A stretch of DNA of 37,549 bases from Chitinophaga pinensis (GTDB taxonomy: Bacteria; Bacteroidota; Bacteroidia; AKYH767-A; OLB10), in the NCBI GenBank assembly GCA_943332105.1, contig CALQOD010000017.1, positions 1 to 37,549 of the forward strand, read 5' to 3'. The position numbers and the translations under genes are program-made. The notes under the pieces are model-generated. The model was not told the DNA's origin. It was given only the letters and a program-made list of their open reading frames with translations, and did not search any database. The stretch's first letter is position 1, and each line of letters opens with the position of its first letter. Positions 11,351 to 37,549 of this stretch are shown one piece after another.

Positions 11351-11389
11351 TGAATAATATACGTGTTTTGTTTTGGCTTTCTAATTATT

Positions 11390-11539
11390 TACCCTAATTC
11401 TGTGTCATATTTTACAATAAACTACCCTAATTCTGTGTCAAATTCTGAAATAATTTACCCTAATTATGTGTCAAATTTTGGAATAAATTACCCTAATTTT
11501 GTGTTGGTTTTTTGAATTATTTACCCTAATTTTGTGACA
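11390..11539 (+). repeat. Five direct repeats of 33-bp exact period before the DUF4143 ATPase
   Basis: An 18-bp core, TACCCTAATTYTGTGTCA, starts at 11390, 11423, 11456, 11489 and 11522: every step is exactly 33 bp. The spacers are AT-rich and also resemble one another (AAATTYTGGAATAAAT type). The last copy reads TGTGACATG, so its end is the start codon of the ATPase gene at 11539. Each copy contains TAATTNTG, and copies 4 and 5 contain TAATTTTG, a full match to the Bacteroidota -7 box. Candidate operator array, tandem promoters or a mobility-related end. Confidence 0.85.
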
Positions 11540-29331: not shown

Positions 29332-29404
29332 GATTCCGTAGCTCAGTTGGTAGAGCAATACACTTTTAATGTATGGGTCCTGGGTTCGAGTCCCAGCGGG
29401 ATCA
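29332..29404 (+). tRNA. tRNA-Lys (anticodon TTT)
   Basis: Complete cloverleaf of 73 nt. Acceptor GATTCCG / CGGGATC (one G-U), D-stem GCTC/GAGC, anticodon stem ATACA/TGTAT around loop CTTTTAA with anticodon TTT at 29365-29367, T-stem CTGGG/CCCAG with TTCGAGT loop, discriminator A. CCA is not encoded. Promoter upstream and terminator directly after make it a single-gene unit. Confidence 0.97.
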
Positions 29405-29413
29405 CTAGTGAAT

Positions 29414-29449
29414 AAAAAGAGAAGGCCCCATTGGGGCCTTTATCTTTTT
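29414..29449 (+). terminator. Terminator after tRNA-Lys
   Basis: Stem AAGGCCCC / GGGGCCTT (29422-29429, 29433-29440), extended across a small bulge by AAAAAGA / TCTTTTT (29414-29420, 29443-29449), ending in T-rich sequence. Confidence 0.88.
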
Positions 29450-29460
29450 ATAACTGCGAG

Positions 29461-30222
29461 CAAGCTTGCTTGAACTCGCAAGTTTGAAAAGATAAAAAGT
29501 GCGAAGCACGCTCTTTTCATTCACAACTCGGATAGCTGGGTCCGCTATGTAGTACAAGCTTGCGCATACTACATCGCAATCCCAATCACTCACAAAAGTT
29601 AATAATTCCATAGGTCCATTTTTGTATAGAGGAATTGCGCAGCTCTCTCTTTTCATTCACAACTCGGATAAGCTGGGTTCCTATGCTTCCATCGGAATGC
29701 AACATCAGACGTAGCAAAGCGAAGTCAATCCGAAATCCTAATAAAGCTTTTTATTTGCAACTCGGATAAGCTGGGTCCGCGATGTAGTACAAGCTTGCGC
29801 ATACTACATCGCAATCCCAATCACTCACAAAAGTTAATCATTCCATAGGTCCATTTTTGTATAGAGGAATTGCATATCTCTCTCTTTTCATTCCCAACTC
29901 GGATAGCTAGGTTCCAATGCTTCGATCGGAATGAAACATCCGACGAAGCGCAGCGAAGTCAATCCCTAATCATAATAAAGCTTTTCATTCCCAACTCGGA
30001 TAAGCTGGGCTTCGATGCTTCAATCGGAATGAAACATCCGAAGTAGCGCAGCGAAGTCAATCCACAATCATAATAAAGCTTTTCATTCCCAACTCGGATA
30101 AGCTGGGTTCCGATGCTTCGATCGGAATGAAACATCCGATGTAGCGCAGCGAAGTCAATCTCAGTTTTTCATCAAGCTTGCTTAAACTCGCAGTTTAAAA
30201 ATATAAAAAGTGCGAAGTATCG
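29461..30222. repeat. Modular tandem repeat array next to tRNA-Lys (units B-A-B-A-A-A)
   Basis: Six units, each opening with AACTCGGAT(A)AGCTGGG, begin at 29525, 29661, 29759, 29896, 29993 and 30091. Units 2, 4, 5, 6 (type A, about 97-98 bp) carry GCTTCGATCGGAATGAAACA and the GCGCAGCGAAGTCAATC tail; units 1 and 3 (type B, about 136 bp) carry a different body with an 11-bp stem around CAAGCTTGCGCA and a TCCATTTTTGTATAGAGG block. The B-A pair is repeated with a 234-bp period. The array is flanked by imperfect direct repeats of about 50 bp (29461-29510 and 30173-30222) that share GTGCGAAG and CAAGCTTGCTT. There is no credible coding sequence in this 880-bp gap. Confidence 0.88.
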
Positions 30223-30286: not shown

Positions 30287-31438
30287 TTACTTCATCCCAG
30301 TAACTGAACTTTCTATTGTTGCAACATACATTTGAGTTTTGGTAATGTAATCTAACACCACAAAATTGTTGTAGAGCACAATTTTTCCTTCCTCGAAGTG
30401 ATCAGTTGGAATTTTTAAAGCGTTAGATTTACCATTTAACAAATTGTATTCTTCGATCGAATTTTTAAACTGGCCATAAAGTAGTGCTCCATTTTGTCCC
30501 TCTTCAAATGCCGGTCCCAGATTTCTTTCTTCAAGAAATATATCCTCATTCTCAAAGTCATGAGCGACTTTAGATTTTCCAGTTGTGCGTATCAAAATCA
30601 AACTCTTTATCTGCTCGGCAGCATCGTTCATTTTTGAAATTATTAGTTGCTGCTGAGTATTACTTGCAGGTGCTTTACCTGGCATGCTTTGTAATCGTTT
30701 CAGCAAATCTTCGCTTTCTAAATATGCATACATTTTAACTTCTGTTTGATGATATGCTGGTCGCGTATCGATTAATGTAAACAACAAGCCAGCAGCTCCA
30801 ACAAACAAAATAGTACTAACAATAGTGTTTAATTTCGTATCAGGATTCCTAACTCCACTGAAGAAATACAGTGGAATAAAAATTAATACAAAAACAAATA
30901 ATGCACAAACACCCAAAACGTTAGCAAATGGCCAATGCATCACTTTAAATAAAACAGAAATACTAACCAACATACCTGCAAGCGTTCCAACTCCTGCTAC
31001 AACTTTTTCTCTTTTAGTATTTACATCTTTTATTTTCAGAACGAACATCAATGGCAAAAAGATTAAACTTAATGTCATAATCCCCAAAAACAAAAATACT
31101 GATGCACCTGGCAAATGCATAAATTTCAAGAATGATCCTAGTAGAAATGTTGCAACGGAAAATATTCCGCTGATAACCATAATTTTCTTCATTGTGTAGT
31201 AGTTTTTAAATGTTAGCAATAAAATAGTCTCTTCTTCAATTTCCTTTAATTCCATTTTGAAGAAGCGAGTAATTATATCTTGATAAAACTGATCGAAATC
31301 GTCATCAAGATTTAATTCGTTCTCAACAATACAACAAATATGATCCAAGAGGTTTAGCTGCAGATCCTCAATCACAACGCCACGCGATTTTATGTCGTTA
31401 AGAATAAAATCAATTTGCTGTTCGCTTAATGTATACAT
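30287..31438 (-). CDS. PadR-linked membrane protein with two GldL-like hairpins
   Basis: 383 residues from ATG 31438. Residues 1-75: a soluble helical part (LSEQQIDFILNDIKSRGV...LLDHICCIVENELNLDDDFDQFY) like the short cytoplasmic prefix seen on many PadR-linked membrane proteins. Then six or so helices holding two copies of a motif: LGSFLKFMHLPGASVFLFLGI and ISVLFKVMHWPFANVLGV. The form KxxHxPxAxxxxxxG is the same as in the N-terminal hairpin of GldL, the T9SS/gliding motor protein. Residues about 235-383 form a soluble, probably periplasmic domain. The start overlaps the PadR stop (TGATG). Function unknown; an envelope sensor or regulator-linked antiporter part is a guess. Confidence 0.72.
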   Translation of the reverse strand: MYTLSEQQIDFILNDIKSRGVVIEDLQLNLLDHICCIVENELNLDDDFDQFYQDIITRFFKMELKEIEEETILLLTFKNYYTMKKIMVISGIFSVATFLLGSFLKFMHLPGASVFLFLGIMTLSLIFLPLMFVLKIKDVNTKREKVVAGVGTLAGMLVSISVLFKVMHWPFANVLGVCALFVFVLIFIPLYFFSGVRNPDTKLNTIVSTILFVGAAGLLFTLIDTRPAYHQTEVKMYAYLESEDLLKRLQSMPGKAPASNTQQQLIISKMNDAAEQIKSLILIRTTGKSKVAHDFENEDIFLEERNLGPAFEEGQNGALLYGQFKNSIEEYNLLNGKSNALKIPTDHFEEGKIVLYNNFVVLDYITKTQMYVATIESSVTGMK

Positions 31439-31776
31439 CAACTTATCTGATGCTTAATATCCAACATGAATTTCATGGTATCGATGAACTCAGCAAACTC
31501 ATTGACTTTCTCAGTAGCTTTAAGCTTGCCTTTAGGAGTTAGAGTATAATATTTACGGACTCGCTTTCCTATGTTCACTATTTCGGTTGTTACAAATCCT
31601 TCCTTTTCTAGAGCATGCAGCGTAGGATATAAGGCACCTTCCGTAATTTGAATTCTATCGGAGGTTAATTCTTTTACTTTTTGAGTTATTTCATAACCAT
31701 ACATTTGGTTAGTTTGAGATAACAACTTTAAAACGATCGTTTTTAAAGTTCCTTTTATTAATTCAGATGAATACAT
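31438..31776 (-). CDS. PadR family transcriptional regulator
   Basis: 112 residues from ATG 31776. A longer reading to 31827 adds hydrophobic residues that do not belong to the fold. Winged-helix DNA-binding domain: LIKGTLKTIVLKLLSQTNQMYGYEITQKVKELTSDRIQITEGALYPTLHALEKEGFVTTE, with the PadR hallmark (I)TEGALYPTLHALEKEG, then RVRKYYTLTPKGK. Short C-terminus, as in PadR-s1 proteins. The next gene, a membrane protein, starts at its stop codon: a typical PadR-regulated pair, in which the regulator usually represses the operon. Confidence 0.9.
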   Translation of the reverse strand: MYSSELIKGTLKTIVLKLLSQTNQMYGYEITQKVKELTSDRIQITEGALYPTLHALEKEGFVTTEIVNIGKRVRKYYTLTPKGKLKATEKVNEFAEFIDTMKFMLDIKHQIS

Positions 31777-31788
31777 AACGCAATGATA

Positions 31789-31803
31789 CATAATATTATT
31801 ATG
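31789..31803. promoter_or_regulatory. Candidate PadR operator
   Basis: Perfect 7-bp inverted repeat CATAATA-T-TATTATG, flanked by ATAC and GCAT, 12 bp upstream of the regulator start. Position and symmetry fit autoregulation; the sequence is AT-rich, so chance is possible. Confidence 0.5.
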
Positions 31804-31935
31804 CATAAGAAACAATAACAATAACACAATCCATACAACATTGAATATCAGTTATAAAAATTAATGTCGACTTGATTCGTTCTTTATATTGAGCTTAAAA
31901 CCAAATTGCTGAGTTCTTTTATCTGCTTTTACTAC

Positions 31936-32220
31936 ATGCATTTTATTTACATACTTTATAGTAAAACGTTAAATAGATTTTACGTCGGAGAATCCGCTTT
32001 GGTAATAACTACTATAGATCAACATCTTTCAAAGTACTTTGAAAACCCAATATCCTTTGTAGCTTTAGATTGGGAAGTATATTATAAAACAGAATGCATT
32101 GACAAAATCCAAGCTCTCAAAATCGAACAGCATTTAAGAAAAATGAAAGGCGTTGATTATTTTGAAAATCTTGTTCGAAACTCAGATTCAGCAGAAAAGC
32201 TATTGAATCAGTATTTTTAA
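31936..32220 (+). CDS. Small GIY-YIG domain protein with a degenerate centre
   Basis: 94 residues from ATG 31936, the normal start (MHFIYILYSKTLNRFYVGES). The GIY and YIG elements appear as YIL and YVG. In active members a conserved Arg follows in the D..RL..HN segment; here the same place reads VITTIDQHLSKYF with no Arg. The catalytic Glu can be placed in ALKIEQHLRKMKG. Typical of the small UPF0213-like group found in many copies in Bacteroidota, but probably inactive or changed. It stands alone between the PadR unit and a gene remnant. Confidence 0.75.
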   Translation: MHFIYILYSKTLNRFYVGESALVITTIDQHLSKYFENPISFVALDWEVYYKTECIDKIQALKIEQHLRKMKGVDYFENLVRNSDSAEKLLNQYF

Positions 32221-34526: not shown

Positions 34527-37500
34527 TTAATCCTTATAAATTCGCAAGTAACTTGATGATTTTGATGGCGATTCAAGTACAACTAAGTACATCCCGGATG
34601 TAATATCAGAAAGGTCCATATCAAAATTATTAAATCCTTCTTGGATTACTATTCTTTGCGTAATAATTAGGTGTCCAGTCAAATCGACAATTTTCATTAA
34701 TCCATCCACTGTAACATCTGAAGTAAACTCAACATTCACCTTGCCTTTTGTTGGATTAGGATAAACAGTTAAGTTAAACGAGCCATCATCCGTAGAAGAA
34801 TTAGATTCACGGCAAGAGAATGCAACAGAAATTGATTTATAAGAATTAATACCGCATGCATTGTTCGCAGTAACTTTCACCGTTCCTGCTGTTGTTCCAA
34901 ATTTTACAGTTACAGTATTTGTATTAGCTCCTAAAAGAATTGTAACTCCAGAAGGGAATGTCCAAGTATAAGATGTTGCACCATAAATAGCAGGAGTGCT
35001 GAATACTACTCCAGACTGATTTTTACAAATAGTAGCAGGGTAAGTAATTACTGTAGGAGTTGCTGGTTTTGCTGCTACAGTTACTGATCTGGCACTACTA
35101 CTTCCACAAGTATTTACCGACTTAACAGTAATTGACCCTGAAGTAGTGAATGTAGAGTTAAACTTAACAAACAAGGAAGTTGTACCTTGTCCTGATATAA
35201 TTGTAACTCCAGACGGAACAGTCCATGTATAACTTGTTGCACCAGCAACGGCAGTAGTTGTGTAATTTACATTTTGTTGCTGACAAACCCCATTCAAAGG
35301 ACCTGAAATTGATACCGGTATTCCAGGTGCGGACGTTATAGTCATTTTGGATTCATCACTTGAACCACAGCTGTTCACTGCTTTCACTTGAATATAAACA
35401 CTACTAGCCACTATTCCTGCATTAACAGTTAAAGTAGTAGTCCCTTGTCCACTTGCAATTGTAAATCCTGCAGGTAATTTCCACAAATAAAAGGTAGCAC
35501 CAGCAACTGGCGCTATAGAATATACTAAACCATTTTTACTACAAACACCAGATGAAAGACCACTGATCGTTCCTGGCTTTGTAGGTATTTTTGACACAGT
35601 TACTGATACAGATGATGTTGCTGTACATCCAGTAGAACTAGTTGCCAATACAGTATAGGTAGTAGTTGTTGTTGGAGTAAATGAAACAGTTGCACCAGCT
35701 TTGTTTCCTGGATTCCATAGATAAGTAGCTGCATTTCCAGTAGCAGTTAATGTTACACTTGAACCAGAGCAAATAGTAACGTTAGCACCTGCATTCACGG
35801 AAACAGTTGTTGTGCCAGGCATTACCCCAGCCACAGTTGAAGTACAACCTTTATTATCCGTTACAGTAAATGAATAAGCTGCAGAAGCATTAACCAAATA
35901 AGAACCCGTTCCAATATAAGGAGATGTTCCTCCTGTTGCAGAAACCACTATTGTTCCCTGATTAGCTATACAAGTTGGTGCAGTTGCGCTAGCTGAGGCT
36001 ACCAATAAAGCTGGAGTGGCATTAATAGTTGCTGATGCCGTAGCAGTACACCCTTTACTATCTGTAACAGAATAATTATAAATACCTGCAGATAAATTTG
36101 TGACTGCACTACCACCATATGTATAAGAAATGGTTCCTCCAGTAGCGTTTAATACTACTGATCCTTTTGTTCCAAAACATGTAGGCTGTGTTGCTGTTGC
36201 TGTTAATACTAACTGAGCAGGTGATGCATTAATTGTTACAGATGAACTTGAAGTACATCCTTTATTGTCTGTCACAACATAACTATAAGTCCCCGCTGAT
36301 AAATTTACGACTGCATCACCACTATAATTATAAGGACTCGTTCCTCCAGTAGCACTTAATACTACTGAACCTTTCGTTCCAAAGCATGTAGGCTGTGTTG
36401 CTGTTGCTGTTAATGTTAACTGTGCTGGTGCAGCATTAATAGTTGCTGATGAACTTGAAGTACATCCTTTATTGTCTGTCACAACATAACTATAAGTCCC
36501 CGCTGATAAATTTACGACTGCATCACCACTATAATTATAAGGACTAGTTCCTCCAGTAGCACTTAATACTACTGAACCTTTCGTTCCAAAACAGGTAGGC
36601 TGTGTTGCTGTTGCTGTTAATGCTAATTGAGCAGGCGCTGCATTAATTGTTGCAGATGAACTTGAAGTACATCCTTTATTATCCGTCACAACATAATTGT
36701 AAGTCCCTGCTGATAAATTTACAACCGCATCACCACTATAATTATAAGGACTCGTTCCTCCAGTAGCACTTAATACTATTGAACCTTTCGTTCCAAAGCA
36801 TGTAGGCTGTGTTGCTGTTGCTGTTAATACTAACTGTGCTGGTGCAGCATTAATAGTTGCTGATGAACTTGAAGTACATCCGTTATTATCTGTTACAAGA
36901 TAAGTATAAGATCCTGCTGATAAATTTACAACCACATCACCACTATAATTATAAGGACTAGTTCCTCCAGTGGCGCTTAATACTACTGAACCTTTTGTTC
37001 CAAAACATGTAGGCTGTGTTGCTGTTGCTGTTAATACTAACTGAGCAGGTGCCGCATTAATTGTAGCTGATGAACCAGAAGTACATCCGTTATTATCTGT
37101 TACAAGATAATTATAAGATCCTGCTGATAAATTCGAAATTGCATCGCCGCTATAGTTATAAGGACTTGTTCCTCCAGTAGCACTTAATACTACTGAACCT
37201 TTCGTTCCAAAGCATGTAGGCTGTGTTGCTGTAGCTGTTAATTCTAATTGAGCAGGTGCTGCAATAATTGATGCTGATCCAGATGCTGTACATCCGTTAT
37301 TATCTGTTACAAGATAATTATAAGTCCCTGATGATAAATTCACAATCGCGTCACCACTATAGTTATAAGGACTTGTTCCTCCAGTTGCACTTAAAGCTAC
37401 TGAACCTGTTGTTCCAGAGCATATAGGTTGTGTTGCTGTTGCTGTTAATACTAACTGAGCAGGTGCTGCATTAATAGTTACTGATGAACTTGAAGTACAT

Positions 37501-37549
37501 CCGTTATTATCTGTTACAAGATAAGTATAAGATCCTGCTGATAAATTTA
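34527..37549 (-). CDS. Giant SprB-repeat adhesin with T9SS sorting domain, N-terminus outside the window
   Basis: The frame is open through the window edge at 37549; about 1,007 C-terminal residues are visible, so the GTG at 37343 is not a start. First come eight SprB-type units of 69 residues (NLSAGTYxYxVTDNxGC ... TATQPTCFGTKGSVVLSATGGTSPYNYSGD); the last is diverged. Then one Ig-like/PKD-like domain (AGANVTICSGSSVTLTATG), three further PKD-like domains of the VAGATxYxWxxPxGxTIxxGQGTT pattern with a NSCGSS-type Cys, and a type A T9SS sorting domain (VYPNPTKGKVNVEF to the end). Each SprB unit has two Cys. Surface-anchored or secreted adhesin, as SprB is in gliding bacteria. The neighbouring cyclase gene starts 118 bp downstream of its stop. 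Confidence 0.92.
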   Translation of the reverse strand, partial: NLSAGSYTYLVTDNNGCTSSSSVTINAAPAQLVLTATATQPICSGTTGSVALSATGGTSPYNYSGDAIVNLSSGTYNYLVTDNNGCTASGSASIIAAPAQLELTATATQPTCFGTKGSVVLSATGGTSPYNYSGDAISNLSAGSYNYLVTDNNGCTSGSSATINAAPAQLVLTATATQPTCFGTKGSVVLSATGGTSPYNYSGDVVVNLSAGSYTYLVTDNNGCTSSSSATINAAPAQLVLTATATQPTCFGTKGSIVLSATGGTSPYNYSGDAVVNLSAGTYNYVVTDNKGCTSSSSATINAAPAQLALTATATQPTCFGTKGSVVLSATGGTSPYNYSGDAVVNLSAGTYSYVVTDNKGCTSSSSATINAAPAQLTLTATATQPTCFGTKGSVVLSATGGTSPYNYSGDAVVNLSAGTYSYVVTDNKGCTSSSSVTINASPAQLVLTATATQPTCFGTKGSVVLNATGGTISYTYGGSAVTNLSAGIYNYSVTDSKGCTATASATINATPALLVASASATAPTCIANQGTIVVSATGGTSPYIGTGSYLVNASAAYSFTVTDNKGCTSTVAGVMPGTTTVSVNAGANVTICSGSSVTLTATGNAATYLWNPGNKAGATVSFTPTTTTTYTVLATSSTGCTATSSVSVTVSKIPTKPGTISGLSSGVCSKNGLVYSIAPVAGATFYLWKLPAGFTIASGQGTTTLTVNAGIVASSVYIQVKAVNSCGSSDESKMTITSAPGIPVSISGPLNGVCQQQNVNYTTTAVAGATSYTWTVPSGVTIISGQGTTSLFVKFNSTFTTSGSITVKSVNTCGSSSARSVTVAAKPATPTVITYPATICKNQSGVVFSTPAIYGATSYTWTFPSGVTILLGANTNTVTVKFGTTAGTVKVTANNACGINSYKSISVAFSCRESNSSTDDGSFNLTVYPNPTKGKVNVEFTSDVTVDGLMKIVDLTGHLIITQRIVIQEGFNNFDMDLSDITSGMYLVVLESPSKSSSYLRIYKD
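35892..37549 (-). repeat. Eight in-frame 207-bp repeats (SprB units)
   Basis: Unit starts on the minus strand fall at 37547, 37340, 37133, 36926, 36719, 36512, 36305 and 36098, a constant 207-bp step equal to 69 codons. The copies at 36305-36926 are nearly identical in DNA, including third positions, while those at the two ends differ more. The pattern points to recent duplication or gene conversion in the middle of the array. Confidence 0.92.

What the first reader, a model, noticed from the sequence alone, without database searches (positions are those of the whole stretch)
29525..30190. Modular B-A-B-A-A-A repeat array downstream of tRNA-Lys
Six units share a common head and tail but have two alternative bodies (97-98 bp and 136-137 bp), and the B-A pair itself is repeated at 234 bp. 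Such a combinatorial structure is unlike simple satellite repeats. All bodies have stems. No coding capacity and no insertion sequence are present.
Basis: seen in the sequence. Interest (0 to 1): 0.65.

Follow-up and report, generated by a model that had tools for sequence, protein, structure and literature searches.

The report
Decayed tRNA-tail hairpin repeat array
Behind a lysine tRNA gene of a freshwater Bacteroidota bacterium lies a six-unit hairpin array whose unit heads are decayed, reversed copies of that tRNA gene's own 3' end; similar debris sits behind many other tRNA and tmRNA genes of the group, in the places where small GIY-YIG nuclease genes also cluster, which points to an undescribed kind of tRNA-targeting element or rearrangement hotspot.

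Summary
The six-unit B-A-B-A-A-A array is real and is found only here in its own genome. It is not an isolated satellite. Each unit's shared "head" is a decayed reverse-complement copy of the 3' end and trailer of the adjacent tRNA-Lys gene: of 90 tRNAs tested this one matches best (mean 25.5, next 18.0). The "bodies" stand where the T-loop would be and are hairpins. A fold-back of the tRNA's own terminator precedes the array; its arms differ between genus members but stay complementary within each lineage.

The same architecture occurs behind other tRNA and tmRNA genes: 7/30 tRNAs here and 5/29 in a congener carry inverted copies of themselves, another family shows direct copies (7/30), a Firmicutes control 0/30. 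The fold-back apex TCAAGCWTGCTTGA, when non-coding, always lies behind a tRNA or tmRNA. Small GIY-YIG nuclease genes share this niche (14 of 59 within 170 bp of a tRNA, same strand), often followed by a hairpin-interrupted tRNA copy; one lies 1.7 kb beyond this array. Best reading: debris of GIY-YIG-associated, break-driven rearrangement at tRNA 3' ends. Origin well supported; mechanism inferred.

The parts
29332..29405 (+). tRNA-Lys (anticodon TTT), the source of the copied 3' end
   Evidence: ARAGORN, Rfam RF00005
29412..29451 (+). intrinsic terminator of tRNA-Lys (inverted repeat around GGCCCC/GGGGCC followed by T-rich tract)
   Evidence: inverted repeat I4, sequence
29437..29500 (+). fold-back of the terminator tail: left arm 29439-29460, loop CAAGCTTGCTTGAA 29461-29474, right arm 29475-29496
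   Evidence: inverted repeat I1; fold z -5.7; arms differ between lineages but stay complementary within each
29499..29509 (+). mini-hairpin GTGC-GAA-GCAC between fold-back and first head
   Evidence: sequence
29511..29646 (+). unit 1, type B: head 29511-29540 (inverted tRNA-Lys 3' end + trailer), hairpin 29538-29583, tail with second hairpin
   Evidence: repeat family D2; head alignment
29647..29745 (+). unit 2, type A
   Evidence: repeat family D1; head score 31 vs null 99th percentile 19
29746..29880 (+). unit 3, type B; 18-bp stem 29772-29789/29802-29819 with loop CAAGCTTGCGCA
   Evidence: D2 and I5; fold z -4.1 whole unit, -5.8 hairpin
29881..29978 (+). unit 4, type A
   Evidence: D1, TRF period 98
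29979..30076 (+). unit 5, type A
   Evidence: D1, TRF
30077..30164 (+). unit 6, type A, truncated
   Evidence: D1, TRF
30170..30215 (+). second copy of the fold-back loop and right arm (CAAGCTTGCTTAAACTCGCAGTTTAAAAATATAAAAAGTGCGAAG), closing the array
   Evidence: families D5 and D6, spacing 711-712
31906..32220 (+). GIY-YIG nuclease gene (94 or 104 aa depending on start); in relative G002 a copy with an in-frame stop lies directly before a second array
   Evidence: Pfam PF01541 E 9e-8; tblastn; G002 sequence

Best explanation
The array is decayed rearrangement debris of the tRNA-Lys 3' end, belonging to a recurrent kind of locus in Bacteroidota. Copies of a tRNA (or tmRNA) gene's 3' end, trailer and terminator are laid down behind the intact gene, inverted and/or direct, with a hairpin at the T-loop (or anticodon) position and a fold-back at the terminator. 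SHOWN: the heads are inverted copies of this tRNA's 3' end; the terminator is folded back on itself; other tRNAs and tmRNAs have the same layout built from their own sequence; small GIY-YIG nuclease genes sit in the same niche, several followed by a hairpin-interrupted copy of the same tRNA. INFERRED: a GIY-YIG nuclease of the tRNA-associated type (one is encoded 1.7 kb downstream) cuts the tRNA 3' region; repair by snap-back or template switching at the T-arm and terminator hairpins leaves X-X'-X structures; the hairpin at the T-loop spoils the extra copy so that it is neither recut nor folded as a tRNA; unequal recombination or slippage then multiplies the units (B-A pair at 234 bp, A-A-A at 98 bp). 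The array itself probably has no host function.
For: Heads vs 90 tRNAs: own tRNA-Lys ranks first, mean 25.5, next 18.0, null 99th percentile 19; first head vs cross-pair null p 0.002. Inverted copies of self behind 7/30 tRNAs in own genome (binomial p 2e-8) and 5/29 in G005 (1e-5); direct copies behind 4/30, 3/29 and, in G035, 7/30 (2e-8); Firmicutes control 0/30 and 0/30. Apex TCAAGCWTGCTTGA: 13 non-coding places in 61 genomes, 10 within 44-82 nt of a tRNA/tmRNA 3' end and 3 further along such arrays. Fold-back arms are lineage-specific yet self-complementary. GIY-YIG genes: 14 of 59 top loci within 170 bp of a tRNA on the same strand (p 7e-20 against 0.5%). tRNA - terminator - GIY-YIG - tRNA copy with hairpin in T-loop or anticodon: L024, L107, L109, L110, L122, L213, L219. 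The window's GIY-YIG protein matches tRNA-adjacent GIY-YIG loci preferentially (10 of 14 vs 5 of 45, p 3e-5). Precedent: the phage T6 GIY-YIG nuclease SegB is tRNA-associated and drives segmental amplification of a tRNA locus (PMC13096335).
Against: The direct half of each unit (tail) is not recognisable above chance (rank 17 of 90), so the full X'-hairpin-X reading rests on the heads. GIY-YIG lies near the Lys array only in G000 and G002, not in G001, G006 or the parts of G004 seen. In the window a PadR/GldL_N gene pair separates array and GIY-YIG. Common apex sequences at different tRNAs are not expected from random template switching alone. No cutting or transcription data exist. Trees of the GIY-YIG genes were not built.
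Confidence: 0.55

Rival explanations
1. Pure replication error: the T-arm and terminator hairpins provoke snap-back or template switching (tandem inversion duplication / inverted triplication) with no enzyme; the arrays then grow by slippage. GIY-YIG genes are only co-tenants of tRNA 3' ends.
For: X-X'-X layout centred on two natural quasi-palindromes; interstitial inverted triplications are a known replication product (PMC4689423, abstract). Arrays exist without a nearby GIY-YIG gene (G001, G006).
Against: The same apexes (CAAGCTTGCTTG at the terminator, GC-GNA-GC at the T-loop) recur at different tRNAs, at tmRNA and in several genera; the control genome shows none; hairpins stand exactly in tRNA loops behind GIY-YIG genes.
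Confidence: 0.2
2. A non-autonomous mobile hairpin element (REP/MITE-like) that inserts at tRNA and tmRNA 3' ends and is moved in trans by a transposase or nuclease.
For: Recurrent conserved apexes and hairpins; constant position 44-82 nt behind tRNA/tmRNA genes; G002 has a second array 2.3 kb from the first on the same contig.
Against: Stem arms are made from the host locus, not from a shared element: each tRNA has its own arms, and the Lys arms differ between lineages. No dispersed copies of the Lys units in the genome.
Confidence: 0.12
3. A functional RNA: the fold-back and hairpins are kept by selection, for example to finish termination, protect the pre-tRNA trailer or act as an RNA sponge.
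For: Fold-back complementarity maintained with different sequences in three lineages; strong fold z-scores for B and for the fold-back.
Against: Array lies behind an intrinsic terminator; A bodies fold hardly better than shuffles; B stems gain unpaired changes in G002 and G006; most tRNAs in the genome lack the feature; G003 and G005 lack it at tRNA-Lys.
Confidence: 0.1
4. Old integrase attachment-site debris: integrating elements that used the tRNA 3' end left displaced 3' ends behind.
For: Direct copies start in the T-arm and run to the acceptor end, as att sites do; neighbouring gene content differs between genus members.
Against: Copies are also inverted, carry a hairpin in the T-loop, and occur in tandem within about 100 bp with no cargo; no integrase was seen among the proteins tested next to the array.
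Confidence: 0.08

Closest known systems
SegB-type free-standing GIY-YIG homing endonucleases next to tRNA genes (T-even phages; PMC13096335)
   Same: Small GIY-YIG nuclease gene beside a tRNA gene; tandem amplification of tRNA-containing segments; microhomology between tRNA and nuclease gene ends.
   Different: Here chromosomal in Bacteroidota, immediately behind the tRNA terminator; extra tRNA copies are interrupted by hairpins, inverted copies occur, and many arrays carry no nuclease gene. Cutting not shown.
Tandem inversion duplication / origin-dependent inverted triplication (PMC4689423)
   Same: X-X'-X order of a segment with palindromic junctions.
   Different: Units of about 100 bp, always at tRNA/tmRNA 3' ends, with conserved junction hairpins, repeated as arrays.
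REP/GTAG palindromic repeats with RAYT transposases (PMC3733652)
   Same: Short hairpin repeats in intergenic DNA, sometimes clustered.
   Different: Stem sequence comes from the adjacent tRNA, not from a dispersed family; no other copies in this genome.
tRNA 3'-end attachment sites of integrative elements
   Same: Displaced copies of the T-arm to acceptor segment behind an intact tRNA.
   Different: No cargo or integrase found here; inverted copies and T-loop hairpins.
Palindrome about 10 bp downstream of Methanopyrus kandleri tRNAs (PMC5217627)
   Same: Palindrome at fixed distance behind tRNA genes.
   Different: That is one common sequence behind about half of the tRNAs of one archaeon, with no tRNA copies.

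Membership tests
tRNA-associated GIY-YIG homing element (SegB-like) | GIY-YIG domain protein encoded near the tRNA | tested here: met
   PF01541 hit at 31906-32220, 2.5 kb from tRNA-Lys; closest matches are tRNA-adjacent GIY-YIG loci
tRNA-associated GIY-YIG homing element (SegB-like) | nuclease gene embedded in the repeated unit | tested here: not met
   Array units carry no ORF; met only in other genomes (L024, L107, L110; L219)
tRNA-associated GIY-YIG homing element (SegB-like) | site-specific cutting of the tRNA region | not testable with these tools
   needs a cleavage assay
Tandem inversion duplication / inverted triplication | inverted copy of a segment following the original | tested here: met
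   heads match inverted tRNA-Lys 3' end, rank 1 of 90; terminator fold-back
Tandem inversion duplication / inverted triplication | third, direct copy after the inverted one | tested here: inconclusive
   not recognisable in the Lys array (rank 17 of 90); present behind other tRNAs, e.g. L058, L064, L065
REP/MITE-type mobile repeat | dispersed copies sharing stem sequence | tested here: not met
   no second locus in own genome; arms locus-specific
Known structured RNA | match to an Rfam family | tested here: not met
   only the tRNA reaches the gathering score; nothing credible at relaxed thresholds
tRNA-integrase att duplication | integrase gene and cargo between two copies of the tRNA 3' end | tested here: inconclusive
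   no integrase among the 8 neighbouring proteins scanned; wider islands not examined

The most novel reading that the evidence does not exclude
A widespread, undescribed class of tRNA/tmRNA-3'-end elements in Bacteroidota: autonomous units carry a small GIY-YIG nuclease and restore the tRNA they enter, while nuclease-less units are hairpin arrays built from the host tRNA's own tail, in which a hairpin at the T-loop or anticodon disarms the extra tRNA copy and makes it immune to recutting.
Probability: 0.35. Interest if true: 0.78.

Novelty: new variant of a known kind. Interest (0 to 1): 0.6.

Why it matters
tRNA 3' ends are the classic landing sites of mobile DNA, nearly always explained by integrases. 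Here a different traffic at the same sites appears, linked to small GIY-YIG nucleases and leaving self-copied hairpin arrays behind tRNA and tmRNA genes. It would explain much unannotated intergenic sequence in Bacteroidota, suggests how a selfish nuclease can live beside an essential tRNA without destroying it, and gives a natural record of template-switch rearrangement. Seven papers' searches found no description of it in bacterial chromosomes, though the library holds open-access papers only.

Tried and rejected
Rfam at gathering and relaxed thresholds: only the tRNA. Exact and degenerate head patterns in genome contigs: only genus members plus one chance hit in a Lachnospiraceae MAG; none in viral contigs. 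Array as a dispersed repeat: rejected. Array with GIY-YIG always adjacent: rejected (G001 and G006 lack it). A first alignment test with a 900-nt search space was too weak to separate signal from chance and was replaced by a 260-nt window with a cross-pair null. Direct-copy reading of the unit tails: not supported. GCGAAGC as a universal mark of GIY-YIG gene ends: seen just behind the stop codon in L107 and L112 only. Four of the TCAAGCTTGCTTGA hits are inside ORFs (efflux-adaptor-like and RecG-like by inspection) and are chance. One Pfam call failed on a wrong frame.

Full report
1. Observation. The array is present as described: two B units 235 bp apart (96% identical) and four A units at spacings 234, 98 and 98. 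It starts right after a fold-back of the tRNA-Lys terminator (arms 29439-29460 and 29475-29496, loop CAAGCTTGCTTGAA), and the loop plus right arm of that fold-back recur at 30170-30215, closing the array (families D5 and D6). B hairpins and the fold-back are far more stable than shuffles (z about -5.7); A bodies are only weakly so. No other copy exists in the own genome, and no Rfam family matches.

2. Relatives. Among 100 genomes, matches to the array occur in the genus only, apart from one 34-base hit at E 0.008: G001 (one B plus a partial head), G002 (an array behind tRNA-Lys and a second one 2.3 kb further on), G004 (short units), G006 (B then A); G003 and G005 have none at tRNA-Lys. The records are freshwater Bacteroidota MAGs. 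In G002 the second array follows a GIY-YIG gene copy with an in-frame stop.

3. What the units are. Reading downstream of all 30 tRNAs found in the own genome showed that many carry the same layout made from their own sequence: trailer, terminator, a short hairpin apex, the reverse complement of terminator and trailer, then a copy of the T-arm and acceptor end whose T-loop is replaced by a mini-hairpin such as AGC-GAA-GCT. A test with a cross-pair null (tRNA i against the downstream region of tRNA j) found inverted self-copies at p below 0.01 for 7 of 30 tRNAs, tRNA-Lys among them (p 0.002), and direct self-copies for 4 of 30. In congener G005 the numbers are 5 and 3 of 29; in G035 of another family 1 and 7 of 30; in a Lachnospiraceae control 0 and 0 of 30. 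For the Lys array, each of the six heads scores 22-31 against the inverted tRNA-Lys 3' end plus trailer, while 89 other tRNAs give a 99th percentile of 19; the own tRNA-Lys ranks first of 90. The direct half is not recognisable (rank 17 of 90). So the head is an inverted tRNA tail and the alternative bodies are hairpins standing where the T-loop would be.

4. The fold-back apex. TCAAGCWTGCTTGA occurs at 17 places in 61 genomes. Four are inside ORFs. The 13 others all belong to tRNA or tmRNA loci: ten lie 44-82 nt behind the 3' end of tRNA-Cys, -Ser, -Val, -Arg, a degenerate tRNA, or tmRNA, and three lie further along arrays. L130, L132 and L134 carry tandem arrays of the same style. In the genus, the Lys fold-back arms have three quite different sequences that remain complementary within each lineage and not across lineages, apart from one intermediate pairing.

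5. The nuclease link. Small GIY-YIG genes lie within 170 bp of a tRNA on the same strand in 14 of 59 top loci; chance would give about 0.5% (p 7e-20; the 0.5% is my estimate from tRNA density). In L024, L107, L109, L110, L122, L213 and L219 the order is tRNA, terminator, GIY-YIG, then a copy of the same tRNA with a palindrome in its T-loop or anticodon arm; L107 and L219 continue into a further nuclease copy. The window encodes such a protein at 31906-32220, and its matches fall preferentially on tRNA-adjacent loci (10 of 14 against 5 of 45; adjacency of contig-end loci could not be judged). A published precedent is SegB of phage T6, a tRNA-associated GIY-YIG nuclease that drives amplification of a tRNA segment (PMC13096335).

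6. Mechanism. Shown: inverted tRNA-tail origin, terminator fold-back, recurrence at other tRNA and tmRNA genes, and the shared niche with GIY-YIG genes. Inferred: cutting near the tRNA 3' end, snap-back or template-switch repair at the T-arm and terminator hairpins, disarming of the extra copy by a hairpin, and later growth by recombination. The weak points are the absence of a GIY-YIG gene at the Lys locus of G001 and G006, the unrecognised direct halves, and the lack of any biochemical evidence. Pure replication error is the main rival; conserved apexes argue against it as the whole story.

7. Novelty. I found no description of this in the papers searched, which cover open-access literature only. 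I rate it a new variant of a known kind: known parts (GIY-YIG at tRNAs, inverted triplications) in an undescribed combination.

Noticed in passing
L024, L107, L109, L110, L112, L115, L122, L213, L219: tRNA - terminator - GIY-YIG gene - hairpin-interrupted copy of the same tRNA, in several families and classes of Bacteroidota.
   Followed up: partly
L129, L130, L131, L137: tmRNA genes followed by a fold-back with apex TCAAGCTTGCTTGA; in L130 also tandem copies of the tmRNA 3' end with GCGAAGC/GCGCAGC in the T-loop.
   Followed up: partly
30287-31827 and L069 720-2230: A PadR regulator plus GldL_N-like membrane protein pair sits between tRNA-Lys array and GIY-YIG gene in G000 and G002; in G001 and G006 a different gene follows the array, so gene content behind this tRNA changes.
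   Followed up: no
36019-37549: 207-bp tandem repeat (7.4 copies, 87% match) inside the large ORF 34527-37343 on the minus strand, running to the contig end.
   Followed up: no
11383-11536: 33-bp tandem repeat (4.5 copies, TTACCCTAATTCTGTGTCAAATTTTGAAATAAA) in an intergenic stretch directly before the ORF at 11539.
   Followed up: no
L174, L187, L195 (G035) and window A units: T-loop hairpins in another family share the loop TGAAAC with the A body (CGGAATGAAACATCCG), perhaps a conserved element sequence.
   Followed up: no
L134 and L164 region (congeners G003, G005): tRNA-Arg followed by a tandem array built on the same plan as the tRNA-Lys array.
   Followed up: no
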